Assembly (NCBI RefSeq): GCF_024494565.1 | Contig: NZ_JANHDN010000005.1 | Span: 310,001 to 374,000, forward strand | DNA: 64,000 nt | Origin: Halorubrum rutilum | GTDB lineage: Archaea > Halobacteriota > Halobacteria > Halobacteriales > Haloferacaceae | Direction: 5' to 3' | Part shown: positions 32,048 through 46,975 of the stretch, piece after piece | Numbering within the stretch: position 1 is the first letter of the stretch | Layout of the letters: each line of letters begins with the position of its first letter | The notes under the pieces: model-generated | The model's database searches: none | Seen by the model: only the letters and a program-made list of their open reading frames with translations | Told to the model about the DNA's origin: nothing | Program-made: the position numbers and the translations under genes

Positions 32048-32147
32048 GACCCCCGTTTCCGTCACCTCTCGACCCCCTCGTCCGCTCCGGACGCGACGTC
32101 ACCCCCGACCCGCGGATTGATATGTGACCGACCGCTCCCTTCCTCAC

Positions 32148-34037
32148 ATGGTCGCGGAGGCGCTGACGTCCGACGCCGCCCACCTCGCCGTCGGCGGCGC
32201 GCTCGTCGCCGTGGCGCTCGCCGTCGTGTATCAGACGGACCGACCGAGCGGCGCGTGGACCCGCGCGCTCCGCTCGCGCTTCCTGCTCGGGGTCCCGTGG
32301 GGAACGCTCGTCGCCGTCGCGGGCGTGACCGGGGTGTACCTCTTCGTGCAGAGCGGGCTGGGGACCCCCGACCGGCCCGTCGTGATCCCGTTCCGCTCGT
32401 GGTCGTACCTCTACCCGGAGGGGATCCTCTGGTCGAGCTTCGCGCACGCGAGCCGGGGCCACCTCACGGGGAACCTCCTCTCGGCGCTCGTCGCGGGCGG
32501 GATCGCCGAGTACGCGTACGGCCACTTCCCCGGCGGCCGCGAGGTCGACGACGAGACCGGGACGCTCCGATCGGTGCTCCCGTCGCGCGCGTCGGTGCGA
32601 CGGCTCCGCTCGAAGGGGCTCGGCGCGCTCGGACTCGGACGGGTCGGACGTTCGACGCGCGCGTCGCTCTCGACGGTCGCGTCGCGGCCGGACCTGGGCT
32701 CGCTCGCCGCGAACCCGGGCGTTCGCGCGTTCGTCGTCGTGCCCGGCGCGATGGCGGTGTTCGGCGTCGTCTCCGCGCTGTTCGCGCTCGGACCGGTGAT
32801 CGGGTTCTCGGGGGTCGTCTTCGCGCTGTGGGGGTTCGCCCTGGTCTTCCACCCGGTCGGGACGATCGCGGCGCTCACGGGCGCGACGCTCGTCGACGTC
32901 GCCTACGAGACCCTCCGGAACCCGGTCGTCACCGCCGAGGCGAGCGGGTCCTACGGCCCGCCGGGGTGGGCGAACGTCGCGATCCAGGGCCACGCGCTCG
33001 GACTCATCGCCGGGATCCTCGCCGCGGCCTGGCTCGTCCGGCGGCGACGCGGGAGCGAGGGCCGCGCCGACGCGGCGGCCGAGGGGTCGCGGACGTTGGC
33101 ATCGGCCGGCGACTCGCGGACGACCGCCCTCGTCGCGTTCGGCGCCGTCCTCCTCTTCGGCGCGTCGCGCCGGCTCTGGGCGGTGTACTGGTACCTCGGG
33201 AACCAGCGGTACGAGCTGTACCGGGCGCTCGGGGTCGGCCTGCTCGCGGTCCTCGCGGCGATCGTCGCCCTCGCGGTCGCGGGGCGAGACGAGCCGCTAC
33301 GTCCCGATCTGGCCGTCCCGGAGCCCGACACGGTCCGGGGGGCCGTCCGGTCCGCCACGCCGGCCGCGGTCGGGCTGCTGCTGCTCGCCTCGGCGCTGGC
33401 GGTCGTCGCCGGGCCGGGCGTGGTCCCGAACCTCGTCGCCGTCGACGACGGCGACCTGCCCGGCGACCCGATCGAGGTCGACGGCTACCGGCTGACGTAC
33501 GCGGAGAACGTCGAGAACCGGGCCGTGAGCGCCGTCGACGTCGAGGCGTTCGGCCGGTCGACGAGCGTCAACACCTCGGGGGTGATCGTGACGAACCCGG
33601 ACCGGGAGATCTGGACGACGGCGGTCTCGCGCGGGAACCTCGCCTTCTGGGGGTACCGCGCCGTCGACCTGGGCGGGACCGGCTGGCGCGAGACCGTCTG
33701 GGTCCATCGCGTGGGGTGGGTGGCGGCGAACGGGGGCCCGACGTACCGGGTCGACGCGGTCCGGAACGAGACGCGCTCGACGCTGTTCACGAGCGAACCG
33801 GCGCGGGCGGAGCCGCGGATCGACGGGCGAAACGTGACCGTCGCGGCGGTCGAGGGCGGATTCGAACTTCGCGTCGCTCACGGGGGCGAGACCGCGCGGG
33901 CCGGGCTCCCAGCGGCGAACGAGTCGGTGGCCCTTCAGGGGGTCGCGTTCGTCCGCGAGGCGGACGCCGTCTTCGCGGAGCGCGGAGAGACGCGGGTGCG
34001 GATCGCGACGCGAGAGCGGTACGAGGGCCGGCAGTGA
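32148..34037 (+). CDS. Rhomboid-family intramembrane protease with C-terminal extracellular domain
   Basis: A 629-residue membrane protein. Membrane helices fill residues about 5-380. The rhomboid signature is present: HASRGHLTGNLLSAL, then the catalytic serine in IGFSGVVFALWGF (near residue 220) and the catalytic histidine in IQGHALGLIAGI (near 281). Further helices run to about residue 425. The remaining 200 residues (VVPNLVAVDDGDLPGD onward) form a soluble domain, probably outside the cell. A disordered insert lies between the Asn and Ser motifs. An in-frame GTG at 32124 would add eight residues; an A/T-rich ATTGATATG about 28 bases upstream favours 32148. Confidence 0.9.
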   Translation: MVAEALTSDAAHLAVGGALVAVALAVVYQTDRPSGAWTRALRSRFLLGVPWGTLVAVAGVTGVYLFVQSGLGTPDRPVVIPFRSWSYLYPEGILWSSFAHASRGHLTGNLLSALVAGGIAEYAYGHFPGGREVDDETGTLRSVLPSRASVRRLRSKGLGALGLGRVGRSTRASLSTVASRPDLGSLAANPGVRAFVVVPGAMAVFGVVSALFALGPVIGFSGVVFALWGFALVFHPVGTIAALTGATLVDVAYETLRNPVVTAEASGSYGPPGWANVAIQGHALGLIAGILAAAWLVRRRRGSEGRADAAAEGSRTLASAGDSRTTALVAFGAVLLFGASRRLWAVYWYLGNQRYELYRALGVGLLAVLAAIVALAVAGRDEPLRPDLAVPEPDTVRGAVRSATPAAVGLLLLASALAVVAGPGVVPNLVAVDDGDLPGDPIEVDGYRLTYAENVENRAVSAVDVEAFGRSTSVNTSGVIVTNPDREIWTTAVSRGNLAFWGYRAVDLGGTGWRETVWVHRVGWVAANGGPTYRVDAVRNETRSTLFTSEPARAEPRIDGRNVTVAAVEGGFELRVAHGGETARAGLPAANESVALQGVAFVREADAVFAERGETRVRIATRERYEGRQ

Positions 34038-34160
34038 GACGGCGTTGCCCCGTCGAACGTCGCTCCATCAGACGGCGTTCCGTCGGAACCGGTCGGCGAC
34101 GCGAAGGTCATCTCCGAAGCCCCGGCCGCTCGGCGATACGGGATCGACGCCGGATCGTCG

Positions 34161-34440
34161 GTGAACGCGGCCAAAGCCCCAGTCGCGAGGACCGCCGAAC
34201 GTCGCTCCCGCTCGCTCCGCTGCACGGGCTGCGACTTCCGTGCTTCCGGTCGTTTCACTCGCGGGACTCGCGACTGCCCCTTCGAGTCCCGCCCGCACAG
34301 CGACCGCGCCTCACACCTCCCCAGCCTCGTCGCGGCCGTCTTTAAACGGCCGCGACTCCCTCGCGCGTGCCCCTCGCGGCCGCCTTCGGCGGCCACTCGG
34401 AGACACGCGCCACCGCATCGGTTTAAACACTCTCCTCCGG
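34161..34440 (+). repeat. Dispersed structured repeat, full copy A
   Basis: Nearly all of the 385-base gap 34038-34422 after the first 100 bases, and the first bases of the next gene's 3' end, belong to this element. It has a head (CCAAAGCCCCAGTCGCGAG), a distant partner (CTCGCGACTGCCCC) forming a 9-bp stem, then CCTCCCCAGCCTCGTCG. A second hairpin has arms GCGGCCGT and ACGGCCGC, and a third is GGCCGCC-TTCG-GCGGCC. Constant blocks between the hairpins are shared with the copy at 44.8 kb. Open reading frames across it are by-products of high GC. No gene is supported. Confidence 0.85.
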
Positions 34441-35949
34441 TTTCTCCCGGACGGTCCCGCCGCCGAGCCCCTCCCACTCGACGCGGTAGCCGAGCCGCGA
34501 GAGCGCGGCGCTCGCGTCGTCGATACCGTAGTCGTCGAGGACCGACTCGGCCGCCGAGAGCGCCGTCCCGGCCTCGATTTCGGCGTCGACCGCTTCCAGT
34601 ACCGCGGGCCGAACGAGCGTCCGACCGATCCGCTCGTGGTCGGGGAACGCCTTGCCCTCGATCGCCTCGACGCTCACGCCGCGCTCGGCCGCGAGGTCGT
34701 CCAGCCCGATCGCGTCGACGTCGGGCGAGAGGGCGTCCGGGAGGTCGGCGGCCGCGTCCGCGACGAACTCGGCCTCGTACTCGCGGAGCACGTCGACGAC
34801 GTCCTTCACCCGCACCGTCCCGGAGTAGGTGACGACGCGGTGGTCGCGCGCGGCGATCTCCTCGCCGACGCCGAGGCTCTCGTCGACGGCGACCAGCAGG
34901 TCCACGTCCTCCACGTCCGCGAGCTGGGAGAGCTTCTTTTCGACGTAGTCGGGCGTCCAGAAGCCCATCACCTCGAAGAACAGCCGGAAGTCGGCGTGGG
35001 CGTAGTCGAACGCGAAGTCGGGGATCATCACCCGCGTCCCGGTTTCGAGCGGTTCCGGCTCGCGGACGAGTGTCCAGTCGAGGTCGAGCCCGCGGAACCG
35101 GCCGGCGAAGTCGGCCTCGACCCCGCTGTCGAAGTCGGGCTCCGCGACCGGCTCGACGCCCGGCACGGTCACGTCGCCGTCGGAGAGGCGCATGGTGCGC
35201 TCGCGGCCGCGGTCGTCGATCGTCGCCGCGAGCTCCCACTCCGCGGACTCCGCGACGGTGCGGAGCAGCCGCGCGAACGCGGTCCCGTAGCGACGGGTGC
35301 GCGAGAACAGGGCGTCGGGGCCGGTGACGACCAGCTCGCGGCCCTCGAGGGTCCTCTCCAGCTCGTACATCAGGCGCAGGCGCTTGACGGCGGAGACGAG
35401 CCGCTTCGGGTCGTTCGACCGCACACGGACCTCGGTGGCGTCGAAGAGGGCGGTCTGTGCGAGCGAGAGGTCGTACTGCTCCAAGAGCGCGTCCGGGTCC
35501 CACCGCACGTCGGCGTCGACGAGGACCTCGTTGACGTCGCGGTCGGCGTACAGCGACGCCTCGACCGCCTCGGACTCGATCCCGAGCGCGTCGGCGGCGC
35601 GGTCGACGGCGGCCTCGCGCTCCGCCTCGCTCGCGACGCCGACCGTCTCCGCGGCCTCGAACGCGGCCCGCCGGACGCGACGCGGCGGGACCGGCGCGCG
35701 CGTCTCGAAGGCGCACTCGCGCTCGACGAGGGCGGCGAGCCCGCGGACGAGCTTGAAGTCGCCGCCGGATTCCGCGGCGTCGGCCTCCAGCGCCGCCAGC
35801 GCGTCGTCGAGGTCGCCGCGGCGCTCCCCGACGCGGGACTCGAAGGTCCCGAGGACCGTCGCGGCGAGCGGCCGGTGCTCGCGGCCCGTGAACCGCGGGC
35901 GGTAGCCCCCGCCGGCCCGCGAGACGCGCAGGAGGTCCTTGCGTAGCAC
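34423..35949 (-). CDS. Bax1-like nuclease (DUF790)
   Basis: A 508-residue protein of the DUF790 family, known in archaea as Bax1, a nuclease partner of the XPB helicase. The N-terminus MLRKDLLRVSRAGGGYRPRF is the family hallmark. The C-terminal part has the nuclease core MIPDFAFDYAHADFRLFFEVMGFWTPDYVEKK, with Asp, Glu and Lys in PD-(D/E)xK-like order, followed by VDLLVAVDESL. The protein is of normal length. XPB is usually encoded next to Bax1, but neither neighbour here is a helicase: the left side is a non-coding repeat and the right side is divergent elp3. A role in DNA repair is known for the family. Confidence 0.88.
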   Translation of the reverse strand: MLRKDLLRVSRAGGGYRPRFTGREHRPLAATVLGTFESRVGERRGDLDDALAALEADAAESGGDFKLVRGLAALVERECAFETRAPVPPRRVRRAAFEAAETVGVASEAEREAAVDRAADALGIESEAVEASLYADRDVNEVLVDADVRWDPDALLEQYDLSLAQTALFDATEVRVRSNDPKRLVSAVKRLRLMYELERTLEGRELVVTGPDALFSRTRRYGTAFARLLRTVAESAEWELAATIDDRGRERTMRLSDGDVTVPGVEPVAEPDFDSGVEADFAGRFRGLDLDWTLVREPEPLETGTRVMIPDFAFDYAHADFRLFFEVMGFWTPDYVEKKLSQLADVEDVDLLVAVDESLGVGEEIAARDHRVVTYSGTVRVKDVVDVLREYEAEFVADAAADLPDALSPDVDAIGLDDLAAERGVSVEAIEGKAFPDHERIGRTLVRPAVLEAVDAEIEAGTALSAAESVLDDYGIDDASAALSRLGYRVEWEGLGGGTVREKPEESV

Positions 35950-36036
35950 GGCGACGACTACGCGAGCGCCGGCCTAAAACCGGCGGGTTCTCCCGGTGCG
36001 ACACGCTTAACTCCGGAACCCGTCGATCGGAGCGTA

Positions 36037-37779
36037 ATGAGTACCGACGCGGCGAGTGACGCGGACGCTGCCGGTGACGGCGGCGGAGGGGAGAGTTCCG
36101 GCAGCGACGAGCCCGAGGCGTTCGTCCGGACCTGCGAACACCTCGTCGACCGGATCCTCGCGGGGGAGATCGACCGCGACGACCTGGAGTCCGCCAAACT
36201 CGACGCCTGCTCGGAGTTCTCCTCGCCGAAGGTCCCGAAGAACACCGAGATACTGGACCACGCGCCCCCGGAGGCCCGCGACGACGTGATCGAGGTCGTC
36301 CGGCGGAAGCCGGTCCGGACCGCGTCCGGCGTCTCGCCGGTCGCGATCATGACGTCGCCGAAGCTCTGCCCGCACGGGAAGTGCCTCTACTGCCCCGGCG
36401 GGCCGGCCTCCGAGTTCTCCTCGGCGCAGTCGTACACGGGCCACGAGCCCGCCGCGGCCCGCGGCGAGCAGAACGACTACGACCCGTACGGGCAGGTCAC
36501 GCTCCGGCTCGAACAGCTCCGGAAGATCGGCCACCCGGTCGACAAGGTGGAGCTCATCCTGATGGGCGGGACGATGACGGCGCGTTCGCACGACTACCAG
36601 GAGTGGTTCGTCAAGCGCGCCTTACAGGCGATGAACGACTACGACCTCGACAAGGAGCCGGAGCCGGCCGAGGAGGAGTCGTTCGCGCCCGACCCCGAGG
36701 CGAGCGAGTTCGAGTACCTCGAAGACGTGATCGCGGACAACGAGACGAACGCCATCCGCAACATCGGGACCACCTTCGAGACGAAGCCGGACTGGTGCGA
36801 CCCCGAGCAGATCGACCGCATGCTCGACCTGGGGGGGACGAAGGTCGAGGTCGGCGTCCAGACCACCTACGAGCGGATCAACCGCGAGATGCACCGCGGC
36901 CACGGCAACGAGGCCTCCCGGAACGCCAACCGCCGACTGCGCGACGCCGCGTTCAAGGTCGGCTTTCACATGATGCCGGGCCAGCCGGGGATGACGCGGG
37001 AGATGTGCGTCGAGGACTTCCGCCAGCTGTTCGAGAACCCGGACTGGCGCCCCGACTACCTCAAGATCTACCCGACCCTCGTCGTCGAGGGGACCCGGGT
37101 ATACGACCGGTGGCGCCGCGACGACTTCGAGCCGCTCTCGAACGAGGAGGCGGCCGACGTCGTCGCCGAGGCGATGGACCGGATCCCGAAGTACACCCGG
37201 CTCCAGCGCGTCCAGCGAGACATCCCCGCCGACTTCATCGAGGGCGGCGTCTGGAAGTCGAACCTCCGGCAGCTCGCCGATCAGCGGGCCGAGGAGAAGG
37301 GGATCGTCCAGCGCGACATCCGCGCCCGGGAGGTCGGCCACAACGACGCGGATCCGGACCCGGACGACGTGGAGCTCGACGTGCTGACCTACGAGGCCGG
37401 CGGCGGGACGGAACACTTCATCTCCTTCGAGGACCCCGTCCGCGACCTGCTCGTCGGCTTCTGTCGCCTCCGGTTCCCCTCGTTCGCCCCCGACCAGCCG
37501 GGGGCGCCGGGCACCGAGGACGACGCGGTCCGCCGCGAGCTGGCGGACGCCGCGCTGATCCGCGAGCTCCACGTGTACGGCAGCGAGGTCGCCATCGGCG
37601 GCGACGGCGACTGGCAACACCAGGGGTACGGGCGGAGACTGCTCGAACGCGCCGAAGCGATCGCCCGCGATGCCGGCTACCGAAAGCTGGCCGTCATCTC
37701 CGGGATCGGCGCCCGGGAGTACTACCGGAACAAGCTCGGCTACCACCAGGACGGACCGTACGTCTCGAAGCGGCTGTAG
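36037..37779 (+). CDS. elp3: Elp3, tRNA uridine-34 modification radical SAM/acetyltransferase
   Basis: Adds the cm5-type group to U34 of tRNAs. The 580-residue length is normal. The radical SAM cysteines are C111, C116 and C119 in CPHGKCLYCPGG. Downstream are ILMGGTMTARSHDYQEWFV, FETKPDWCDPEQIDRML, KVEVGVQTTYERI and FHMMPGQPGMTREM. The C-terminal acetyltransferase domain has the acetyl-CoA motif QHQGYGRRLLE near residue 527, and GAREYYRNKLGYHQDGPYVSK. It is divergent from the Bax1-like gene and followed by rqcH after 84 bases. In archaea Elp3 acts without the other Elongator subunits. Confidence 0.97.
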   Translation: MSTDAASDADAAGDGGGGESSGSDEPEAFVRTCEHLVDRILAGEIDRDDLESAKLDACSEFSSPKVPKNTEILDHAPPEARDDVIEVVRRKPVRTASGVSPVAIMTSPKLCPHGKCLYCPGGPASEFSSAQSYTGHEPAAARGEQNDYDPYGQVTLRLEQLRKIGHPVDKVELILMGGTMTARSHDYQEWFVKRALQAMNDYDLDKEPEPAEEESFAPDPEASEFEYLEDVIADNETNAIRNIGTTFETKPDWCDPEQIDRMLDLGGTKVEVGVQTTYERINREMHRGHGNEASRNANRRLRDAAFKVGFHMMPGQPGMTREMCVEDFRQLFENPDWRPDYLKIYPTLVVEGTRVYDRWRRDDFEPLSNEEAADVVAEAMDRIPKYTRLQRVQRDIPADFIEGGVWKSNLRQLADQRAEEKGIVQRDIRAREVGHNDADPDPDDVELDVLTYEAGGGTEHFISFEDPVRDLLVGFCRLRFPSFAPDQPGAPGTEDDAVRRELADAALIRELHVYGSEVAIGGDGDWQHQGYGRRLLERAEAIARDAGYRKLAVISGIGAREYYRNKLGYHQDGPYVSKRL

Positions 37780-37863
37780 CCGGCCCGGTCCCGGGACGCG
37801 ACCGCTCGGCCGCCCGTCCCCACAACGACACGCCTTTTTCCGGGCCGACGCTCTCGTTCGCGT

Positions 37864-40074
37864 ATGGACCAGAAGCGGGAGCTGTCGAGCATCGACCTCG
37901 CGGCCCTCGTCACCGAGCTCAATCGGTACGAGGGCGCGAAGGTCGACAAGGCGTACCTCTACGACGACGACCTGCTCCGGCTGAAGCTCCGCGACTTCGA
38001 CCGCGGCCGCGTCGAGCTCATGATCGAGGTGGGCGACGTCAAGCGCGCCCACGTCGCGGACGCCGACCACGTCGCGGACGCGCCCGGTCGCCCGCCGAAC
38101 TTCGCGAAGATGCTCAGAAACCGGATGTCGGGCGCCGACTTCGCGGGGGTCGAGCAGTACGAGTTCGACCGGATCCTCACCTTCGAGTTCGAGCGCGAGG
38201 ACGAGAACACGACGCTCGTCGCCGAGCTGTTCGGCCAGGGCAACGTCGCCGCGCTGGACGAGACCGGTGAGGTCGTCGGGTCGCTGTCGACGGTCCGGCT
38301 CAAGTCCCGGACGGTCGCGCCCGGCGCGCAGTACGAGTACCCCGCCTCGCGGCTCAACCCCCTCGACGTGAGCCTCGGCGGGTTCGAGCGGCACATGCGC
38401 GACTCCGACAGCGACGTGGTGCGCACCCTCGCCACGCAGCTCAACCTCGGCGGCCTCTACGCCGAGGAGGTGTGTACCCGCGCCGGCGTCCCGAAGGAGA
38501 CGCCGATCGAGGAGGCGACCGACGACCAACTCCGCGCGCTCCACGAGGCGCTCGAACGGATCGGCGACCGGCTCCGGTCCGGCGACATCGACCCCCGCGT
38601 GTACGAGGAGGAGCTGTCCGAGAGCGAGGCGGACGACCGCGAGCCGCGGGTGGTCGACGTCACGCCCTTCCCGCTCTCCGAGCACGAGGGGCTGCCGAGC
38701 GTCGGCTTCGACTCGTTCAACGCCGCCGTCGACGACTACTTCCACCGGCTCGACCGCGACGACAGCGAGGCGGGCGAGGCCCCGTCGGACGCGAGCGCCT
38801 CCCGTCCCGACTTCGAGGAGGAGATCGCCAAACAGGAGCGGATCATCGAACAGCAGAAGGGGGCGATCGAGGGGTTCGAGGAGCAGGCCGAGGCGGAGCG
38901 CGAGCGCGCCGAGCTGCTGTACGCGAACTACGACCTCGTCGACGAGGTGCTCTCGACGGTGCAGGACGCCAGAGCGGACGAGGTCCCGTGGGACGAGATC
39001 GCGGAGACGCTCGACGCGGGCGCCGAGCGCGGGATCCCAGCCGCGGAGGCCGTCGTCGACGTCGACGGCGGCGAGGGGACCGTGACGGTCGCGCTCGACC
39101 GCGAGGGCGACGAGGACGGCGAGAGCGACGGAGACGGCGACTCGGTCCGCGTCGAACTCGACGCGAGCGCGGGCGTGGAGGTCAACGCAGACCGGCTGTA
39201 TCAGGAGGCCAAGCGCATCGAGGGGAAGAAGGAGGGCGCGATGGAGGCGATCGAGTCGACCCGGACGGAGCTGGAGGCGGTCAGGGAGCGCAAGGCCGAG
39301 TGGGAGGCGAAGCGGGCGGCCGACGACGGAGACGGCGAGGGCGAGGCGGGCGACGGCGAGGACGACGGAGACGAGGCGTACGAGACGGACTGGCTCTCGC
39401 GCTCCTCGATCCCGGTCCGGAGCCCCGACGACTGGTACGACCGCTTCCGGTGGTTCCACACCTCGTCCGGCTACCTCGTCATCGGCGGGCGCAACGCCGA
39501 CCAGAACGAGGAGCTGGTGAAGAAGTACATGGGGAAACACGACCGGTTCTTCCACACGCAGGCGCACGGGGGGCCGGTGACGCTCCTGAAGGCCGCCGGG
39601 CCCTCGGAGTCGGCCGATCCGGTCGACTTCGCCGAGGAGACGCTCCGAGAGGCCGCGCAGTTCGCCGTCTCCTACTCCTCGGACTGGAAGGACGGCCGCG
39701 GCGCGGGCGACGCGTACATGGTCGAGCCGGACCAGGTGTCGAAGACGCCCGAGAGCGGCGAGTACATCGAGAAGGGGAGCTTCGTGATCCGCGGCGACCG
39801 CACCTACTTCGAGGACGTGCCCTGCCGGATCGCGGTGGGCGTGCAGTGCGAGCCCGTGACGCGGGCCATCGGCGGCCCGCCGTCCGCGATCGTCGACCGC
39901 GCGGCGACGTCGATCACGGTGGAGCCGGGGATGTACGCACAGAACGACGCCGCGATGATGGTGTACCGAGAGCTGAAAGAGCGGTTCGCGGACCAGTCGT
40001 TCGTCCGGAGGGTGGCGAGCGCGGATCAACTTCAGGAGTTCCTCCCGCCGGGCGGCTCCGACATCGTCGACTGA
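37864..40074 (+). CDS. rqcH: RqcH (NEMF/Rqc2 family) ribosome quality control protein
   Basis: Binds the large ribosomal subunit with an obstructing nascent chain; bacterial and eukaryotic relatives add C-terminal tails. The 736-residue protein has an NFACT-N domain (residues 1 to about 190) with the key DR pair at D102-R103 in EFDRILTFEF. Helix-hairpin-helix-like helices follow, then a long coiled coil (about 315-360 and 430-485). The NFACT-R domain ends it (WYDRFRWFHTSSGYLVIGGRNADQNEELVKKYM and HTQAHGGPVTLLK). The coiled coil contains an acidic Gly/Asp-rich insert. It is codirectional with elp3 and may share its transcript. Tail addition in haloarchaea is inferred. Confidence 0.94.
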   Translation: MDQKRELSSIDLAALVTELNRYEGAKVDKAYLYDDDLLRLKLRDFDRGRVELMIEVGDVKRAHVADADHVADAPGRPPNFAKMLRNRMSGADFAGVEQYEFDRILTFEFEREDENTTLVAELFGQGNVAALDETGEVVGSLSTVRLKSRTVAPGAQYEYPASRLNPLDVSLGGFERHMRDSDSDVVRTLATQLNLGGLYAEEVCTRAGVPKETPIEEATDDQLRALHEALERIGDRLRSGDIDPRVYEEELSESEADDREPRVVDVTPFPLSEHEGLPSVGFDSFNAAVDDYFHRLDRDDSEAGEAPSDASASRPDFEEEIAKQERIIEQQKGAIEGFEEQAEAERERAELLYANYDLVDEVLSTVQDARADEVPWDEIAETLDAGAERGIPAAEAVVDVDGGEGTVTVALDREGDEDGESDGDGDSVRVELDASAGVEVNADRLYQEAKRIEGKKEGAMEAIESTRTELEAVRERKAEWEAKRAADDGDGEGEAGDGEDDGDEAYETDWLSRSSIPVRSPDDWYDRFRWFHTSSGYLVIGGRNADQNEELVKKYMGKHDRFFHTQAHGGPVTLLKAAGPSESADPVDFAEETLREAAQFAVSYSSDWKDGRGAGDAYMVEPDQVSKTPESGEYIEKGSFVIRGDRTYFEDVPCRIAVGVQCEPVTRAIGGPPSAIVDRAATSITVEPGMYAQNDAAMMVYRELKERFADQSFVRRVASADQLQEFLPPGGSDIVD

Positions 40075-40192
40075 AGACCGACCGAAGGTCGCCTGAGCGG
40101 TCGAGGATCGCCGAGGGCGGACGGCGGGTGGAAACGCCCCGGCGCCTCCGCCGGAGCGCGACCCTTTCAAGCCTCCGCCCCCGACTCCGCCC

Positions 40193-40576
40193 ATGAGCTT
40201 CGAGGCGCTGCCGGACGGCTGGCGCGTGTGGAACGAGGAGCCGAGCGGTCGCGCCATCCTCGTCTACCGGCCCGACGTGTTCGACGGCGACGACCTGCCG
40301 GCCGAGTGTCTCCCGACGATCTACCTGACGAACGGCGCGCGCAACGCCCGCCCCGGATCCGGTCAGTACGCGACCGACGAGTGGCACGTCGTCCTCTTCT
40401 TGGAGCCCGAGGTCGAGGCGGTCTCGGAGACGCGCGAGAGCCGCGAGGCCGGCGCGGCCGCCGCCGTCGACGTCGCGACGCGGTTCGCCGCCGGCGACGT
40501 GGACTACCGGGCGGCCTACCAGGTGCCGAGAGAGGCGTACTTCGAGCGGTTGGACGGGCTGATCGAGCGGAAGTGA
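40193..40576 (+). CDS. Small haloarchaeal conserved protein (DUF5820-like)
   Basis: A 127-residue protein with an alpha/beta pattern: LPDGWRVWNEEPSGRAILVYRPDVFDGDDLPAECLPTIYLTNGARNARPG, then WHVVLFLEPEVEAV, a helix with Ala-rich face, and YQVPREAYFERLDGLIERK. I believe it belongs to the haloarchaeal family named DUF5820, but cannot confirm the number. No function is known. It follows rqcH by 118 bases in the same direction and precedes purF, whose own promoter is clear. Confidence 0.82.
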   Translation: MSFEALPDGWRVWNEEPSGRAILVYRPDVFDGDDLPAECLPTIYLTNGARNARPGSGQYATDEWHVVLFLEPEVEAVSETRESREAGAAAAVDVATRFAAGDVDYRAAYQVPREAYFERLDGLIERK

Positions 40577-40670
40577 ACGAGACGGAGCGACCGGCGGGGT
40601 CGCCCGGTTCGATCCGCGTTCGTGGATATATATTCTGTCATAAATCCCGATCGCACCACGAACACGAGGA

Positions 40671-40678
40671 TTTTTATC
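40671..40678 (+). promoter_or_regulatory. TATA-like box of purF
   Basis: TTTTTATC centred about 29 bases before the purF ATG, consistent with a leaderless start. A further A/T-rich stretch (GGATATATATTCTG) lies at 40624-40637. Confidence 0.5.
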
Positions 40679-40702
40679 GCCTCCCGCCTCACCCTCGCGT
40701 AC

Positions 40703-42202
40703 ATGAACGCCGGTGGGGACCACACCGCTGACGGGCCGCGAGAGAAGTGCGGCGTCGTCGGCGTCTCGCTCGCTGACCGCGAGGCCGCGCGGCCGCTGTA
40801 CTACGCGCTGTACGCGCTCCAACACCGGGGACAGGAGTCCGCGGGGATCGTCACGCACGACGGGTTCCAACAGCACAGCCACGTCGAGCGGGGGCTCGTC
40901 GGCGACGCGTTCGAGGAGGGGGACCTGGCGTCGCTGTCCGGCGGGACCGGTATCGGCCACGTCCGGTACCCGACCGCCGGCAGCCTCGACAAGAGCTGCG
41001 CGCAGCCGTTCTCCGTCTCGTTCAAGTCCGGCTCGCTCGGGCTCTCGCACAACGGGAACCTCGTCAACGCCGACGAGGTGCGCGAGGAGCTCGCGGCGGC
41101 GGGCCACGCGTTCACCTCCGACGGCGACACCGAGGTGATCGCCCACGACCTCGCGCGCAACCTCCTCGAAGAGGACCTCGTGCGCGCCGTCAAACACACG
41201 ATGAACCGCATCCACGGCTCCTACTCGCTAGCGATCACCCACGACGACACGGTGCTTGGCGTGCGCGACCCGCTCGGGAACCGCCCCCTCTGTCTCGGGA
41301 AGATCGACGGCGGCTACGTCCTCGCCAGCGAGTCGGCCGCCATCGACACCCTCGACGGAGAGCTGATCCGGGACGTGCGCCCGGGCGAGCTGGTCGTCCT
41401 CGACCCCGACGGGAGCGGCTACGACACGTACCAGCTCGTCGAGCGCGAGTCGACCGCGCACTGCTTCTTCGAGCACGTCTACTTCGCGCGCCCCGACTCG
41501 GTCATCGACGAGAACCTCGTCTACGAGGTGCGGCGCAAGCTCGGTCGCAAGCTCTGGGCGGAGTCCGGCACCGAGTCGGACGTGGTGATGCCAGTCCCCG
41601 ACTCCGGGCGCGCGTTCGCCTCCGGCTACGCCGACGCGGCCGGCGAGACGACCGCGGACGGGGAGCCCCGCCCGGAGGGGGACGCCGGCATCGAGTTCGC
41701 CGAGGGGCTGATGAAGAACCGCTACGTCGGTCGGACGTTCATCATGCCGACGCAGGACGAGCGCGAGCGCGCGGTCCGGCTGAAGCTCAACCCCATCCGG
41801 TCGACCGTCGAGGGGAAGTCGGTCACCATCATCGACGACTCGATCGTCCGGGGGACGACGTCGACCCAGCTCGTCGACCTCGTCCGCGAGGCGGGCGCCG
41901 AGGAGGTCCACCTCCGGATCGGCGCGCCGGCGATCGTCGCGCCCTGCTACTTCGGGATCGACATGGCGACCCGCGAGGAGCTGATCGCCGCCGACGCCTC
42001 CACCGAGGAGATCCGCCAGCAGGTCGGCGCCGACTCCCTCTCGTACCTCTCGATCGACGCCGTCGCCGAGGCCCTCGGCGAGAGCCGCGCCGACCTCTGT
42101 CTCGGCTGCGTCACCGGGGAGTACCCCTTCGACGTCGAGGGCGAGGAGACCGACCGCGACCTCGATACCGCCGCGCCCGACCCCACGCCGGCGGACGACT
42201 GA
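40703..42202 (+). CDS. purF: Amidophosphoribosyltransferase
   Basis: First step of de novo purine synthesis: glutamine plus PRPP gives phosphoribosylamine. The 499-residue protein has a 15-residue propeptide before the nucleophile Cys16 in REKCGVVGVSL, which should be exposed by self-cleavage. The glutaminase domain shows ALYALQHRGQESAGI, GIGHVRYPTAGS and LSHNGNLVN. The phosphoribosyltransferase domain has the PRPP motif VTIIDDSIVRGTTSTQLVDLV. C-terminal cysteines (DLCLGCVTGEYPF) and one at about residue 255 (AHCFFEHVYF) could hold an iron-sulfur cluster, as in Bacillus PurF. It stands as its own unit with a clear TATA-like box. Confidence 0.97.
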   Translation: MNAGGDHTADGPREKCGVVGVSLADREAARPLYYALYALQHRGQESAGIVTHDGFQQHSHVERGLVGDAFEEGDLASLSGGTGIGHVRYPTAGSLDKSCAQPFSVSFKSGSLGLSHNGNLVNADEVREELAAAGHAFTSDGDTEVIAHDLARNLLEEDLVRAVKHTMNRIHGSYSLAITHDDTVLGVRDPLGNRPLCLGKIDGGYVLASESAAIDTLDGELIRDVRPGELVVLDPDGSGYDTYQLVERESTAHCFFEHVYFARPDSVIDENLVYEVRRKLGRKLWAESGTESDVVMPVPDSGRAFASGYADAAGETTADGEPRPEGDAGIEFAEGLMKNRYVGRTFIMPTQDERERAVRLKLNPIRSTVEGKSVTIIDDSIVRGTTSTQLVDLVREAGAEEVHLRIGAPAIVAPCYFGIDMATREELIAADASTEEIRQQVGADSLSYLSIDAVAEALGESRADLCLGCVTGEYPFDVEGEETDRDLDTAAPDPTPADD

Positions 42203-42356
42203 TCGGGTCGTCGTCGGCCGGTCGGACCCGTTCTCCGGTGCCGGCGAACCCCCTTCGTCCCCGCCGCCACGCCCCCGGCGGCCCCGCCGTCTCGGGTTCT
42301 CGCGACGCGAGCCCGGAATCGGGAATTTAAATACGCCCACGCCGGGAGGTACGCGT

Positions 42357-43064
42357 ATGACATCCGACGCCGACGACGCGACGATGAGTCGCCGCGGGCT
42401 GTTCAGGGCCGGCGCCGCCGGCGCCGCCGTCGCGACCGGTCTCGCCGCCGGGTCCGGGACCGCGGCCGCCCAGTACGGCGGGTACCTGGACGACGTCGAC
42501 AACTACGAGGGCACCGTCGACTACACCGGGCGGGACGAGGTCACGGTCAGCGTCGGCGCGGTCAACGGGCTCCGGTTCGACCCCGCGGCGATCCTGATCG
42601 ACCCCGGGACGACCGTCGTCTGGGAGTGGACCGGCGAGGGCGGCGCGCACAACGTCGTCGCCGAGGACGAGACGTTCGACAGCGGCGAGACGGTCTCCGA
42701 GGCGGGGACCACCTTCGAGTACACCTTCGAGGACGCCGGGGACGGGGACACGTTCAACTACTACTGCACGCCGCACAGGGCGGCCGGAATGAAAGGGGCC
42801 GTCGCGGTCGGCTCCGTCGACGACGACCTCATCGAGCCGGACGCCGGCGGGGACGGCGGCGACGGCGGGAGCGGTGGCGGAGACGGCGGAAGCGGCGGCG
42901 AAGACGGCGGAAGCGGTGGAGGCGGCGACGGCGGGGACGGCGGCGGGAGCGGCGGCCGCGCCCTCACTGCGGGCGACATCGGCGCGCTCGCGCTCGGCTT
43001 CGGCTTCGCCGGCGCGCTGCTCGTCCCGCTCTTCTACGCGGCCCACCAGATGGCGAACGACTGA
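42357..43064 (+). CDS. Halocyanin-like blue copper protein with C-terminal membrane anchor
   Basis: A 235-residue exported electron carrier. The N-terminus has a twin-arginine signal (SRRGLFRAGAAGAAVATGLAAG, cleavage near AAAQY). The plastocyanin-like domain (about residues 45-160) has the copper ligands in order: His in GGAHNVV, then Cys, His and Met in YYCTPHRAAGM. A Gly/Asp/Ser-rich flexible linker of about 45 residues follows, then a membrane helix (DIGALALGFGFAGALLVPLFYAA). The protein would face outward, tethered by its C-terminus, shuttling electrons in the respiratory chain. ATG at 42357 is kept; another at 42384 would start at the twin arginines. It is a single gene. Confidence 0.93.
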   Translation: MTSDADDATMSRRGLFRAGAAGAAVATGLAAGSGTAAAQYGGYLDDVDNYEGTVDYTGRDEVTVSVGAVNGLRFDPAAILIDPGTTVVWEWTGEGGAHNVVAEDETFDSGETVSEAGTTFEYTFEDAGDGDTFNYYCTPHRAAGMKGAVAVGSVDDDLIEPDAGGDGGDGGSGGGDGGSGGEDGGSGGGGDGGDGGGSGGRALTAGDIGALALGFGFAGALLVPLFYAAHQMAND

Positions 43065-43121
43065 CGGTAACGCGACCGGACCGCGGCGTACCCCTCGGTC
43101 CGCGCCGACGCCGACCGCGGG

Positions 43122-43664
43122 TCAGCCGTCGGTCCGCCGGTCCGCGCCGACGCCGAACCGCGACCGCAACCCGACGAGGACCGCCGCGGTCCAGATCACC
43201 GCTTCGAGGTAAAACGACGGCGTCCCGACGTAGAAGGCCGCGAAATCTCCCGGCGGGATGCCCAGGGGCTCGGGCTGTTCGAGCACCGGCCACAGCAGCG
43301 ACACCGCGTTCTCGGCCCGTCCGTTCACGACGATATGGAGCGTGTCGAGCGCGAGGTGGGATCCCCAGCCGACCGCCGCCGCGAGCCCGCGTCGGTGCCG
43401 CGCGGCGACGGCGACCGCGAGGGGAGCGAGCAGCGCGGAGTGGCCGACGGAGTGGTAGACGTCGACGACGCCCAGCGCGCCGAGCGGCTTGTCGACGGCG
43501 TCCGGCAGCGTCGCGCCGACGACGAGCCACCCGACCGAGAGCGTCGGCGTCCCCGGGAGGCGCTCCCGGACGCGGGGGCGGCCGGACAGCCACCCGATCC
43601 AGCCGGCGACGAGGAGGTGGGTCGGGAACAGCACGGCGGCCCGTACGGGCGACGACGGCTTCAA
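43122..43664 (-). CDS. YdjM-like (DUF457) membrane-bound hydrolase-like protein
   Basis: A 180-residue membrane protein with about four helices. The conserved His/Asp pattern of the YdjM/DUF457 group is visible: FPTHLLVAGWIGWL at the start, GATLPDAVDKPLG, VDVYHSVGHSALLAPL and GWGSHLALDTLHI. Members are called metal-dependent hydrolases by sequence, but a reaction has not been shown. It is 69 bases upstream of the DUF420 gene on the same strand facing away; both are minus. No functional link to neighbours is evident. Confidence 0.83.
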   Translation of the reverse strand: MKPSSPVRAAVLFPTHLLVAGWIGWLSGRPRVRERLPGTPTLSVGWLVVGATLPDAVDKPLGALGVVDVYHSVGHSALLAPLAVAVAARHRRGLAAAVGWGSHLALDTLHIVVNGRAENAVSLLWPVLEQPEPLGIPPGDFAAFYVGTPSFYLEAVIWTAAVLVGLRSRFGVGADRRTDG

Positions 43665-43733
43665 CCTTCGTCGTCGATCTCGGCGGTCGGGGGCCCGAAT
43701 TCGGATCGATCGGTGCCGGACGGATCGCCCGGA

Positions 43734-44294
43734 TCAGAAGGCGTGGTACAGCATGACGTACACGCCGATCCCCATCGTGAACGAGATCAGCCAGAGGACG
43801 GCGCCGACGAGACCGACCTGCGCGTGCCGGGTGTGGTACAGCTCCTCGTGCGAGCGCGTCGCGGCGAGCAGGAGCGCGTGGAAGACGAACGGGAGACAGG
43901 CGATCGCGAGCAGGACGTGGATCCCGAGGAAGGGGAGGTAGAGGTACGTGTAGACGGGCTCGGGACCGGGAAACGGCGTCGTCCCGACGTGGATGAGCCG
44001 GTAGAGGTACGCGACGAGGAAGGCGGTAAAGAGGCCGAACGAGGCGATCATGAAGTTCCGGTGCCGCTGGACGTTCCCGCGCGAGATCGCCCGCCACCCG
44101 AGGAGGATGGTGACGATGGCGGTCGCGGAGACGGCGGCGTTGAAGTGCGGGATCGCGGCGAGGACGGCGTCGCTCGCGCGCGGCAGGAGGGAACTCGGGA
44201 TCGCGCCGCCGACGGCACCGAACACCACGGCGAGCGCGGCGACGGAGGCGACGGCGGTCAGGACGGGGACGTTCTCGCGGGCCCAGTCGGACAT
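43734..44294 (-). CDS. DUF420 membrane protein (possible cytochrome oxidase assembly factor)
   Basis: A 186-residue protein with about five membrane helices. The DUF420 pattern is clear: HFNAAVSATAIVTILLGWRAISRGNVQRHRNFM, YLYRLIHVGTTPFPG, IHVLLAIACLPFVFHALLLA and a His-rich loop with EELYHTRHAQVG. Conserved histidines could bind heme or metal. Bacterial relatives such as CtaM help mature heme-copper oxidases, so a similar job is plausible but inferred. No oxidase genes lie in the window. ATG at 44294 begins the hydrophobic domain; an upstream in-frame GTG would add nine residues. Confidence 0.86.
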   Translation of the reverse strand: MSDWARENVPVLTAVASVAALAVVFGAVGGAIPSSLLPRASDAVLAAIPHFNAAVSATAIVTILLGWRAISRGNVQRHRNFMIASFGLFTAFLVAYLYRLIHVGTTPFPGPEPVYTYLYLPFLGIHVLLAIACLPFVFHALLLAATRSHEELYHTRHAQVGLVGAVLWLISFTMGIGVYVMLYHAF

Positions 44295-44430
44295 GCTCGT
44301 GAGGTGGGACGCGACCCCCAAACGCGTGCCGGTTGCGGTCGGCGCGTTCCGGTCGCGGTCGCCGAGTCACGGCCGGCTCCGCCGCCCGGCCGTCTGCGAA
44401 ACCCCGGCACGGTACTCCCGAATGGAAGGG

Positions 44431-44440
44431 CTTTTAATTA
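44431..44440 (+). promoter_or_regulatory. TATA-like box of tRNA-Leu
   Basis: CTTTTAATTA centred about 42 bases before the mature tRNA 5' end. This would place transcription start about 15 bases ahead of the tRNA, leaving a short leader for RNase P. Confidence 0.55.
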
Positions 44441-44477
44441 GGGGAAAGGTAGGTGAGTACGCGACAGAACACCGCGA

Positions 44478-44562
44478 GCGTGGGTAGCCAAGCCAGGCCA
44501 ACGGCGCAGCGTTGAGGGCGCTGTCCTGTAGAGGTCCGCCGGTTCAAATCCGGTCCCACGCA
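44478..44562 (+). tRNA. tRNA-Leu (anticodon GAG)
   Basis: 85 bases folding as a type II tRNA. The acceptor stem is GCGTGGG with CCCACGC (all seven pairs). The D stem is GCC/GGC. The anticodon stem is CAGCG/CGCTG with loop TTGAGGG, giving anticodon GAG, which reads CUC and CUU. A long variable arm (bases 44524-44537) is typical of leucine tRNAs. The T stem GCCGG/CCGGT holds loop TTCAAAT. Discriminator A73 is present and CCA is not encoded. No intron. Confidence 0.96.
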
Positions 44563-44687
44563 TCGCTCGGCGGCACACCCGCCACACCGATGCACGGTGT
44601 TGTCTCTACGACAGCACCCACGCACAACTCCTTTCGAACGTTACGCGCCGAGTGGCTACTCTGTGGTGGGTACCGACTAGCGACATC

Positions 44688-45010
44688 GTGAGCACCGCCA
44701 AAGCCCCACCCGCTCGGTCATAAATTGCTGTTGGCGGATCGACGGCGGACACCTCCAAAGCCCCAGCCGCGAAACCGCAGTACGCTCGTTGCGCTCCTCG
44801 CTCGCTACGCTCGCTGCGGTGCTTACGTCGCCTACTGCGGTTTCGCGGCTGCCCCTTTGAGTCCCGCCCCGCACAGCACGGCACCTCACGCCTCCCCAGC
44901 CTCGTCGGCCTCCCTCCGCTTCGCTCCGGTCGGCCGACTCCCTCGCGCGTGCTGTCTCGCGGCCACCGGCGGCGGCCGCTCGCAGGCACGCGCCACCTCC
45001 CAGTCATTTA
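44688..45010 (+). repeat. Dispersed structured repeat, full copy B, with a second head unit
   Basis: The 529-base gap 44563-45091 between tRNA-Leu and gatE holds no supported gene. From 44755 it matches the copy at 34.2 kb. The first stem is a perfect 18-bp inverted repeat whose arms are AGCCGCGAAACCGCAGTA and TACTGCGGTTTCGCGGCT. Constant blocks TGAGTCCCGCCC and CCTCCCCAGCCTCGTCG follow, then hairpins with GTCGGCC/GGCCGAC and GCGGCC/GGCCGC arms. A further partial head (CCAAAGCCCCA at 44698) lies 57 bases before the main head. The first 120 bases after the tRNA show nothing I can name. Confidence 0.85.
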
Positions 45011-45091
45011 TGAGCACTCTCAGTAATCACGATTCTCGTCGCTCGCGCGAACTGCCACCCTTTTAGTCGCGCGCCGCCGGAGTGTGGCGTA

Positions 45092-46975
45092 ATGAGTACG
45101 GACGCGACCCCCGAGTACGACTACGAGGAGCTGGGGCTCGTCGCCGGGCTGGAGATCCACCAGCAGCTCGACACGGAGACGAAGCTGTTCTGCGACTCCC
45201 CCACCGTCGAGCGCGACCCCGAGGAGTCCGACCGGTCGATCACCCGGCGGCTCCACCCGACGAAGAGCGAGCTGGGCGAGCTCGACGACGCCGCGGTGGA
45301 GGAGAGCCGCGTCGACCGCGAGTTCACCTACCTCGCGTACGACACCACCTGCCTCGTCGAGGAGGACGACGAGCCGCCGCGCCGCGTCGACGACGAGGCC
45401 CTCTCCGTGGCGCTGCAGATCGCCGACCTGCTCGACGTGTCGGTCGTCGACCAGGCGCACGTGATGCGGAAGCTCGTCATCGACGGATCGAACACCTCCG
45501 GCTTCCAGCGCTCGATCCTGCTCGGCCAGAGCGGGGAGATCGAGACGAGCGAGGGCCGGGTGTCGATCGTCGACCTCATGCTGGAGGAGGAGTCGGCCAA
45601 GCGCGTCGAGGAGAAGGAGGACGGGGTCGTCTACTCCCTCGACCGCCTCGGCGTCCCCCTCGTCGAGATCGGGACCGGCCCCGACATCCGGAGCCCCGAG
45701 GGCGCCCGCGAGGCCGCCGAGCGGATCGGGATGCTGCTGCGCTCGACGGGCGCGGTCAAGCGCGGGCTCGGGACGATCCGGCAGGACGTGAACGTCTCCA
45801 TCGCCGACGGCGCCCGCGTCGAGGTGAAGGGGGTTCAGGACCTCCGGGGGATCGAGGAGATCGTCCGCGGCGAGGTCGGGCGGCAGGCCGAACTCCTGGC
45901 GATCCGCGACGAACTCCGCGACCGCGACGCGAGCGTGGGCGACGTCGCGGACGTCACCGACGTCTTCGCCGACACCGAGTCGGGCGTCATCCGGGGCGCG
46001 CTCGACGCGGGCGGGAAGGTCACCGCGGTCCCCCTCTTCGGCTTCGACGGGCTCGTCGGCCGCGAGATCCAGCCCGACCGCCGGCTCGGCACGGAGCTCT
46101 CCGACCACGCGAAGCGCCACGGCGCGGGCGGGATCTTCCACACCGACGAGCTGCCGGCCTACGGCGTGACGGACGAAGAGGTCGACGCCCTCCGCGACGC
46201 GGTCGGCGCGGGCGAGGGCGACGCGGTCGCCATCGTCGCCGCCGACCCGGAGACGGCCGACCTCGCGATCGAGGCCGCCGCCGACCGCGCCGCCGCCGCG
46301 ATCGAGGGCGTCCCCGAGGAGACCCGCGGCGCCAACGACGACGGGACCACGCGCTACCTCCGGCCGCTGCCGGGCGCCGCGCGGATGTACCCCGAGACGG
46401 ACGTACCGCCGGTCGAGCCCGACCCGTCCGACGTGGACCGCCCGGAGCTCCTCGACGAGAAGACCGACCGCTACGTCGAGGAGTTCGGGCTCGACCGCGG
46501 ACTCGCCGAGCAGGTCGCGTTCGGCCGGCGCTTCCCGCTGTTCGAGACCGCGGTCGACCGCGGCGTCGACCCCACCTTCGCCGCGTCGACGCTGGAGTCG
46601 ACGACGACGGAGATCCGTCGGGACGGCGCGCCCGTCGAGAACCTGACGGACGACCACTTCCTCGACCTGTTCGCGCTCGTCGAGGACGGCGACCTCGCGA
46701 AGGAGGGGGTGCCGGAGGTGCTGGCGACGCTCGCCGAGGACCCCGAACTCACGGCCGCGGCGGCCGTCGAGGAGGCGGGCCTCTCGGGCGTGAGCGAGGC
46801 CGAGGTGCGCGAGGCGGTCGTCGAGGTCGTCGAGCGCAACGCCGACCAAGTCGAGGCCGAGGGGATGGGCGCGTTCTCCGGCCTGATGGGCGAGGCCATG
46901 GGGGCGCTCCGCGGGAAGGCCGACGGCGAGGTCGTCTCCGACGTGCTCCGCGAGGAGATCGCCGAGCGGTCGTAG
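45092..46975 (+). CDS. gatE: Glu-tRNA(Gln) amidotransferase subunit E
   Basis: With GatD it converts Glu-tRNA(Gln) to Gln-tRNA(Gln), the archaeal route to glutaminyl-tRNA. The 627-residue length is normal. GatB/E motifs are present: GLVAGLEIHQQLDTETKLFCDSP, TGPDIRSPEGAREAAERIGMLLRSTGAVKRGLGTIRQDVNVSI and VEVKGVQDLRGIEEIVRGEV. An AspRS-like insert domain sits near residues 285-410 (GFDGLVGREIQPDRRLGTELSD, GIFHTDELPAYG). A YqeY-like tail ends it (FSGLMGEAMGALRGKADGEVVSDVL). gatD is not in the window. It starts about 80 bases after the structured repeat. Confidence 0.97.
   Translation: MSTDATPEYDYEELGLVAGLEIHQQLDTETKLFCDSPTVERDPEESDRSITRRLHPTKSELGELDDAAVEESRVDREFTYLAYDTTCLVEEDDEPPRRVDDEALSVALQIADLLDVSVVDQAHVMRKLVIDGSNTSGFQRSILLGQSGEIETSEGRVSIVDLMLEEESAKRVEEKEDGVVYSLDRLGVPLVEIGTGPDIRSPEGAREAAERIGMLLRSTGAVKRGLGTIRQDVNVSIADGARVEVKGVQDLRGIEEIVRGEVGRQAELLAIRDELRDRDASVGDVADVTDVFADTESGVIRGALDAGGKVTAVPLFGFDGLVGREIQPDRRLGTELSDHAKRHGAGGIFHTDELPAYGVTDEEVDALRDAVGAGEGDAVAIVAADPETADLAIEAAADRAAAAIEGVPEETRGANDDGTTRYLRPLPGAARMYPETDVPPVEPDPSDVDRPELLDEKTDRYVEEFGLDRGLAEQVAFGRRFPLFETAVDRGVDPTFAASTLESTTTEIRRDGAPVENLTDDHFLDLFALVEDGDLAKEGVPEVLATLAEDPELTAAAAVEEAGLSGVSEAEVREAVVEVVERNADQVEAEGMGAFSGLMGEAMGALRGKADGEVVSDVLREEIAERS

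What the first reader, a model, noticed from the sequence alone, without database searches (positions are those of the whole stretch)
34161..34440. Structured dispersed repeat with hairpin arms that change together between copies
Copy A (34.2 kb) and copy B (44.8 kb) share constant blocks (CCAAAGCCCCAG, GAGTCCCGCCC, CCTCCCCAGCCTCGTCG, CTCCCTCGCGCGTG and CGCGCCACC). The intervening stems differ in sequence but still pair. Stem 1 is AGTCGCGAG/CTCGCGACT in A and AGCCGCGAAACCGCAGTA/TACTGCGGTTTCGCGGCT in B, with a T-A pair replaced by C-G. Hairpins 2 and 3 also keep pairing with different bases. Compensatory change is the mark of selection on structure, such as a non-coding RNA, an RNA processing or termination element, or a mobile palindromic element needing folding. 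I know of no description of this element; haloarchaeal GC-rich intergenic repeats may be known under other names.
Basis: partly seen in the sequence, partly recalled or inferred. Interest (0 to 1): 0.8.

Follow-up and report, generated by a model that had tools for sequence, protein, structure and literature searches.

The report
Haloarchaeal repeat with swapped hairpins
Two copies in this window belong to a large, apparently undescribed family of non-coding hairpin repeats scattered through Halorubrum chromosomes, in which short joining blocks stay constant while whole hairpins are replaced, so that both arms of a stem tend to change together.

Summary
In detail: both copies are there, with constant blocks and differing hairpins that still pair. 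Copies lie between genes, convergent gaps being over-represented. Across three syntenic genomes, position and orientation are largely inherited (34 of 35 occupied comparisons keep orientation), yet hairpin 2 keeps almost no memory of its locus: its arms pair 92.5% within a copy, 57% when swapped between orthologues, 60% between unrelated loci. Two-sided changes prevail (90 against 39 other stem changes between orthologues) and G-U pairs are rare. The covariation is real, but it looks more like whole-hairpin replacement (exchange between copies, template switching, or both) than stepwise compensation, and does not by itself prove a selected RNA. Same-genome donors were looked for and not shown. 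A minority long form has inserted recently. Closest known kind: REPIN/BIME-type mosaics, but without a linked Y1 transposase. No transcript data were available; function is unproven. New variant of a known kind, interest about 0.6.

The parts
34114..34170 (+). copy A, upstream 57-bp unit (CCGAAGCCCCGGCCGCTCG...); no clear TATA-like box (GCGATACGG at that place)
   Evidence: in 400 kb of each of two genomes 67 occurrences of the block (those of hairpin 1 included) lie within 700 nt of a core; of 10 others one is a variant element and the rest look like chance
34171..34286 (+). copy A, hairpin 1: CAAA/TTCG foot, CCCC/CCCC internal loop, stem AGTCGCGAG/CTCGCGACT (34181-34189 / 34267-34275)
34287..34328 (+). 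copy A, linker; its end CCTCACACCTCCCCAGCCTC is the constant block
   Evidence: CCTCCCCAGCC is kept in 9 of 10 aligned loci of more distant genomes
34329..34356 (+). copy A, hairpin 2 (GTCGCGGCCGT...ACGGCCGCGAC)
34357..34362 (+). copy A, linker TCCCTC
34363..34410 (+). copy A, hairpin 3: outer GCGCGTG/CACGCGC, middle stem, internal loop, inner stem
34411..34427 (+). copy A, right end CACCGC plus AT box TTTAAA, which overlaps the stop codon of the convergent DUF790 gene
44698..44754 (+). copy B, upstream 57-bp unit with TATA-like TCATAAAT
44755..44861 (+). copy B, hairpin 1 (stem 44765-44782 / 44833-44850)
44862..44903 (+). copy B, linker ending CCTCACGCCTCCCCAGCCTC
44904..44938 (+). copy B, hairpin 2
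44939..44944 (+). copy B, linker TCCCTC
44945..44993 (+). copy B, hairpin 3
44994..45013 (+). copy B, right end CACC plus AT box ATTTATGA
44478..44562 (+). tRNA-Leu(GAG) upstream of copy B; with gatE it anchors the orthologous site
45092..46975 (+). gatE-type amidotransferase gene (GatB_N, GAD, GatB_Yqey) downstream of copy B
34423..35949 (-). DUF790 protein gene, convergent, right of copy A
32124..34037 (+). gene left of copy A (no Pfam match)

Best explanation
This is a REPIN/BIME-like family of chromosomal non-coding mosaic elements. SHOWN: constant blocks alternate with hairpins; cores of hairpins 2 and 3 with the same blocks also occur in more distant genomes; most copies compared keep position and orientation across species while their hairpins differ; the two arms of a hairpin mostly change together. 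INFERRED: whole hairpins are replaced in single events. The likeliest routes are recombination between dispersed copies anchored in the constant blocks (moving a ready-made hairpin from locus to locus) and template-switch copying of one arm onto the other (which restores pairing and can invert the loop). The blocks and the ability to fold are kept by selection on a DNA or RNA hairpin; hairpin sequence is largely free. SPECULATIVE: the folded form marks or insulates gene ends, since copies concentrate in convergent gaps; it is tolerated or serves as a 3'-end structure rather than being a specific regulatory RNA.
For: Copy number at least 150 in one chromosome (capped). In three syntenic 400-kb regions 12 of 14 G013 elements are in G152 and 11 in G120 (3 not mappable); 34 of 35 occupied comparisons have the same orientation. 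At the tRNA-Leu/gatE site 34 of 43 loci carry it, all 34 on the gatE strand as I read the rows (4 of the 34 score below 50 bits). Hairpin 2 arms (40 of 41 copies parsed, 32 comparisons): own 92.5%, swapped between orthologues 57.1%, between loci 60.3%; 90 two-sided against 39 other changes. Hairpin 1 (39 copies, 30 comparisons): 98.3 / 84.6 / 80.5%; 49 against 11. Identical hairpin 2 at non-orthologous loci: a 50-nt one in G152 and G120, a 31-nt and a 34-nt one within G152. The most frequent hairpin 2 is found with 20 hairpin 3 alleles. Inverted interior in 3 of 246 distinct hairpin 1 sequences, and by eye in L128 and L132. Template switching as a source of two-sided stem changes and loop inversion is described in PMC8794818 (abstract and passages).
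Against: No exchange breakpoint was mapped. In the three-genome sample identical hairpin 2 alleles are not more frequent within a genome (3 of 350 pairs, one of them the two recent long-form duplicates) than between genomes at different loci (5 of 657); orthologous loci share 1 of 28. The within-genome excess (57 of 1,896 vs 284 of 24,210) is probably a sampling artefact: about 28 of the 48 G152 copies came from loci picked by model score. Hairpin 3 shows no excess (2 of 1,304 vs 26 of 16,841). Hairpins 1 and 3 keep a weak memory of locus in one comparison. One-sided or unpaired states do occur (39 of 129 hairpin 2 changes). In one search the number of further pair types is no higher than in shuffles (308 of 500 as high). 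Unlimited palindrome perfecting would not leave the conserved internal loop and bulge of hairpin 3. No role was demonstrated.
Confidence: 0.5

Rival explanations
1. A multi-copy structured non-coding RNA gene with its own promoter: transcription starts in the upstream unit, the hairpins fold in the RNA, and stems evolve by ordinary compensatory mutation.
For: Strong covariation; folding z -4.4 and -5.3. A TATA-like motif starts exactly 39 nt before hairpin 1 in 92 cases among 216 distinct left flanks (132 flanks have any such motif within 80 nt), archaeal promoter spacing for a + strand start about 10 nt before hairpin 1 (spacing rule recalled). Core blocks are kept in distant genomes.
Against: Few G-U or other one-sided standard pairs (2 of 532 and 10 of 1,187 cells). 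Isolated mismatches lean to A.C rather than G.T on the + strand (hairpin 1 53 vs 16, hairpin 2 17 vs 4; hairpin 3 middle stem 11 vs 1, about 127 of 198 parsed), which points to the - strand and conflicts with the + strand promoter. This lean is not firm: by distinct contexts 16:12, 32:17 or 41:18 with context width (one-sided p 0.29, 0.022, 0.0019); a cruder parse gave 11:11 for hairpin 2, and 26 hairpin 3 sequences gave 0 A.C vs 2 G.T. No Rfam family. Loops can be inverted.
Confidence: 0.22
2. A non-autonomous transposon (MITE or IS200/IS605-derived PATE) that is still moving; orthologous occupation is old insertion.
For: A long form with outer arms is recent: two G152 copies 30 kb apart are 99.7% identical over 301 nt and 95% over 547. 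At one of these sites G152 has about 670 bp where G120 has 22-52 bp and G013 28 bp; at the other about 540 bp where G013 has 5 bp and G120 a flipped copy. Some short-form sites also differ: 2 shared by G152 and G120 are absent in G013 (gaps of about 170-230 bp) and one G120 element has no counterpart.
Against: The common short form is mostly shared in position and orientation. No terminal repeat or target duplication could be defined for it. No exact pattern match in viral contigs; no match of one 117-bp query in plasmids or phages (weak tests, because only short blocks are shared). Y1 transposase loci are not linked: 1 of 29 has an element within about 1.5 kb, and G040 has no Y1 match but at least 25 elements.
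Confidence: 0.17
3. A bidirectional transcription terminator or 3'-end stabiliser of convergent genes.
For: Convergent gaps hold 42 of 94 flank-resolved copies against 20 of 302 element-free gaps of 100 bp or more, and 20 of 36 copies in two syntenic regions.
Against: Of 121 convergent gaps of at least 20 bp in those regions 101 have no element. T5 tracts within 80 nt after stop codons are not rarer where an element is present (4 of 40 ends vs 7 of 202). 11 of 36 copies there lie between divergent genes. Enrichment can equally mean that insertions are tolerated there.
Confidence: 0.11

Closest known systems
REPINs (REP doublets forming hairpins, Pseudomonas; PMC3116915, abstract and passages seen)
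   Same: High copy number, extragenic; conserved blocks flank an interior that varies but keeps pairing, with compensatory changes reported as common; seen as hairpins in ssDNA or mRNA.
   Different: Here usually three hairpins joined by constant blocks; about 250 bp from hairpin 1 to the right end (median of 157 copies); archaeal; no linked Y1 gene found; positions mostly shared between species.
BIMEs (bacterial interspersed mosaic elements; PMC2817692, search listing with start of abstract only; details recalled)
   Same: Mosaic of palindromic units and short constant motifs in intergenic regions, often at gene ends.
   Different: In BIMEs the palindromic units are the conserved part (recalled); here short linker blocks are conserved and the palindromes vary.
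GTAG- and CGTC-tagged REPs (PMC3733652, abstract and passages seen)
   Same: Short palindromes in many copies; CGTC REPs lack a dedicated transposase.
   Different: No fixed tag: the base of hairpin 2 is CGTC, CGCC, CGCG, CGTT, CGGC or CATC and differs in some distant genomes.
PATEs and SMR-A elements of Haloquadratum walsbyi (PMC3119063, passages seen)
   Same: Haloarchaeal transposase-free repeats with palindromes; SMRs inserted inside palindromes resemble the nested two-hairpin inserts seen here.
   Different: PATEs have IS605-like near-terminal palindromes and strain-specific insertions; here no link to Y1 genes was found and positions are mostly shared. No sequence comparison with PATEs was made.

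Membership tests
REP/REPIN with RAYT | conserved tag tetranucleotide at the hairpin foot | tested here: not met
   foot of hairpin 2 varies among copies
REP/REPIN with RAYT | linked Y1 (RAYT) transposase | tested here: not met
   element within about 1.5 kb of 1 of 29 Y1 loci from 12 of 13 genomes; G040 has no Y1 match yet at least 25 elements
REP/REPIN with RAYT | many extragenic copies; variable interior that keeps pairing | tested here: met
BIME | mosaic of palindromic units and motifs in varied combinations | tested here: met
   optional upstream units, optional CCGGAAGACG module (12 of 125), nested inserts, hairpin 2 with many hairpin 3 alleles
BIME | palindromic unit sequence conserved | tested here: not met
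BIME | binds gyrase, IHF or Pol I (recalled) | not testable with these tools
   no binding data
MITE | terminal inverted repeats and clean insertion | tested here: inconclusive
   long form: recent insertions with near-empty sites; inverted end motifs CGGGAGT.../...ACTCCCG and GTTGAAAC.../...GTTTCAAC only by eye; short form: none defined
PATE / IS200-IS605 derivative | near-terminal palindromes matching IS605-type elements | not tested
   only Y1 linkage was tested
Structured ncRNA family in Rfam | match above gathering score | tested here: not met
   window 33900-45300: only the tRNA passes; none in L001, L121, L125, L151
Structured ncRNA | discrete transcript | not testable with these tools
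   no RNA-seq available

The most novel reading that the evidence does not exclude
Haloarchaea carry a dispersed chromosomal system in which hairpins behave as exchangeable cassettes between constant docking blocks, replaced as units by a dedicated or recruited recombination activity acting on one folded strand, so that structure is kept while sequence turns over completely within a genus.
Probability: 0.15. Interest if true: 0.85.

Novelty: new variant of a known kind. Interest (0 to 1): 0.6.

Why it matters
Covariation is routinely taken as proof of a functional RNA. This family is a natural test case, with over a hundred copies in several genomes and many species, where two-sided changes prevail over intermediates, so it can separate selection on structure from templated or cassette-like replacement. 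It is also a common, apparently undescribed component of Halorubrum chromosomes that assembly, annotation and ncRNA searches will meet.

Tried and rejected
Rfam: only the tRNA matched above its cut-off. Regular spacing or strand bias along the chromosome: not seen among the 150 listed copies of G152 (75 plus, 75 minus; gap CV 0.88, random 95% range 0.85-1.15). T-tract terminators: no difference. Folding energy of the two strands: minus more stable in 181 of 198, 185 of 203 and 187 of 202 hairpins, but no control was made, so it is not used. My first parse of hairpin 3 mispaired it and a second recovered 26 hairpins; the explicit middle-stem parse replaced them. Alignment A1 held mis-oriented loci and was not used. 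Empty sites of the short form could not be aligned cleanly. Within-genome hairpin sharing looked enriched and vanished in the sample.

Literature: seven searches, one of them for five sequence blocks of the element (0 papers), gave no description in the rows listed. Passages only were seen of PMC5018182, PMC7002113 and PMC12306157 ('Halorubrum' and 'halo' do not occur in its text). Subscription papers and supplements were not searched.

Full report
CHECK. The two copies are as described and fold better than all 200 shuffles. A covariance model built from other genomes finds no further copy in the window at E <= 0.001.

FAMILY. A model of hairpins 2 and 3 was built from 19 copies picked from 54 eligible ones, one per distinct 35-nt hairpin 2. 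It matches all 27 genomes tested: 10 to 139 matches each, 139 being the scoring cap, reached in 4 of 27. In one 3.02-Mb chromosome all 150 scored candidates match. In a family-wide draw 49 of 148 genomes match at 1e-4: 30 with best E below 1e-15 and 19 weakly (at most 25 candidates scored per genome). From seven of the weak genomes 20 loci were fetched and 10 aligned: 9 have CCUCCCCAGCC exactly, followed by a paired hairpin and the UCCCUCGC block or nearly so. In the 8 whose surroundings I printed I saw no hairpin 1. So the core is older than Halorubrum, or has passed between genera, and hairpin 1 looks like an addition (inference).

ANATOMY (+ strand): a TATA-like box, with none to three further recognisable 54-57-bp upstream units; hairpin 1 with a CAAA/TTTG foot (CGAA goes with TTCG: 69 and 16 of 86 parsed copies, 1 mixed) and a CCCC/CCCC internal loop; a C-rich linker; hairpin 2; TCCCTC; hairpin 3 with a bulge, an internal loop and a covarying 3-bp middle stem; CACCGC; then often an AT box (97 hits at 5-8 nt; 131 of 208 flanks have any hit within 60 nt). 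The linker as a whole is not constant: between hairpins 1 and 2 it is 0.71 identical between orthologues and 0.75 between unrelated loci, because its first part and optional modules vary; its end CCTCAC.CCTCCCCAGCC is the constant block. Optional modules: a CCGGAAGACG segment in 12 of 125 copies, a nested two-hairpin insert in hairpin 3 in 6 of 125 and in hairpin 1 in 11 of 246 distinct sequences, another insert in 8 of 246.

COVARIATION. Arms of hairpin 1 pair 93.7% over 10 bp in their own copy and 76.5% when dealt out at random among 86 distinct copies. The hairpin 2/3 structure has 96.8% paired cells against 82.4% shuffled and 32-42% slid; two-sided cells 73, one-sided standard 2, unpaired 17; further pair types no higher than shuffled. 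An alignment of 49 model matches, most at the gatE site, others from elsewhere in the same loci and window copy A, and fitted to the model, has 94.4% paired cells, 184 two-sided, 10 one-sided standard and 67 unpaired.

WHAT CHANGES. G152, G120 and G013 are syntenic, G013 at about 89% to the other two and those at about 92% to each other. Elements found by the model: 19 in G152 and 17 in G120, 14 in G013; I added one G152 element seen by its block. Of 14 in G013, G152 has 12 and lacks 2; G120 has 11, 3 not mappable. Of 20 in G152, G120 has 12, lacks 4, 4 unknown; G013 has 12 and lacks 8. Orientation is the same in 34 of 35 occupied comparisons. At the gatE site 34 of 43 loci have the element; not found by the model in L142-L146, L275, L280, L281, L285, though L145 shows remains by eye. 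Left out of that call: L147 and L148-L150 (fragments or other hits) and six loci of distant genomes (L289-L293, L295), where no block was seen at the site. Hairpin 2 arms taken from orthologues pair no better (57%) than from unrelated loci (60%), while own arms pair 92.5% (16 loci listed, the flipped one left out). An identity comparison agrees: hairpin 2 0.650 orthologous vs 0.656 not, with weak memory in hairpin 1 (0.79 vs 0.73) and hairpin 3 (0.78 vs 0.73); only 8 of 11 pairs and 15 gatE loci could be parsed, the latter showing no memory in any part. In pairwise alignments (output partly cut) constant blocks stand beside wholly different hairpins, once next to an identical hairpin 1; one pair has an identical hairpin 2.

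MECHANISM. This suggests that both arms often change in single events. Identical hairpins at other loci and free combination of hairpin 2 with hairpin 3 favour exchange between copies; inverted loops and well-paired arms favour template switching (PMC8794818). I could not show same-genome donors: 3 of 350 vs 5 of 657. The conserved mismatched loops of hairpin 3 suggest that something still selects the fold. Which strand folds is unsettled: the mismatch pattern leans to the - strand (weaker or opposite in cruder counts), the upstream TATA box to a + strand transcript.

PLACE. Of 125 copies, 31 lie too near a locus edge; of 94 others 42 are between convergent, 43 between co-directional (27 along, 16 against the element) and 9 between divergent genes. 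Element-free gaps of 100 bp or more: 20, 164, 118. In the two syntenic regions: 20 convergent, 11 divergent, 5 co-directional. Genes were called with my own codon-bias script. Convergent enrichment is common to both samples; the rest differs.

MOBILITY. A minority long form has extra arms; two G152 copies are nearly identical. One of the two sites is nearly empty in both other genomes, the other nearly empty in G013 and occupied by a flipped copy in G120. At a third long-form place G120 has 20 bp where G152 has about 2.4 kb with the element and a gene. The short form, to which both window copies seem to belong, is mostly shared, but gain or loss occurs: two sites shared by G152 and G120 are empty in G013, two shared by G120 and G013 hold other sequence in G152, and one G120 element has no counterpart.

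VERDICT. Real, large, apparently undescribed family; closest to REPINs/BIMEs in behaviour, failing the tag and transposase tests.

Noticed in passing
G152:C1 about 1,736,260-1,736,800 and 1,766,420-1,767,090 (in L307, L309): Long-form copies with outer arms; the arm end CGGGAGTGAGTATCGCAGATCG occurs 22, 19, 0, 66 and 6 times in G152, G120, G013, G009 and G026 (up to 3 mismatches), so it may be a repeat family of its own.
   Followed up: partly
G152:C1 about 1,826,800-1,827,450: Around another long-form copy lie GTTGAAAC at the left and GTTTCAAC at the right, reminiscent of insertion-sequence ends; no transposase partner was sought.
   Followed up: no
L096, L106, L108, L091, L124, L127: Small two-hairpin inserts nested inside the hairpins or linkers of the element, like SMR elements inside palindromes in Haloquadratum.
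   Followed up: partly
L122, L124, L125, L133, L134, L138, L280, L286, L287: A further match of the model lies on the downstream side of gatE.
   Followed up: no
L142: In Halorubrum aquaticum the tRNA-Leu/gatE gap has no element but about 1.3 kb of other sequence.
   Followed up: no
window 43737-44294: Beside the tRNA-Leu, a DUF420 membrane protein gene on the minus strand; the longer overlapping ORF 42964-44370 has no Pfam match.
   Followed up: no
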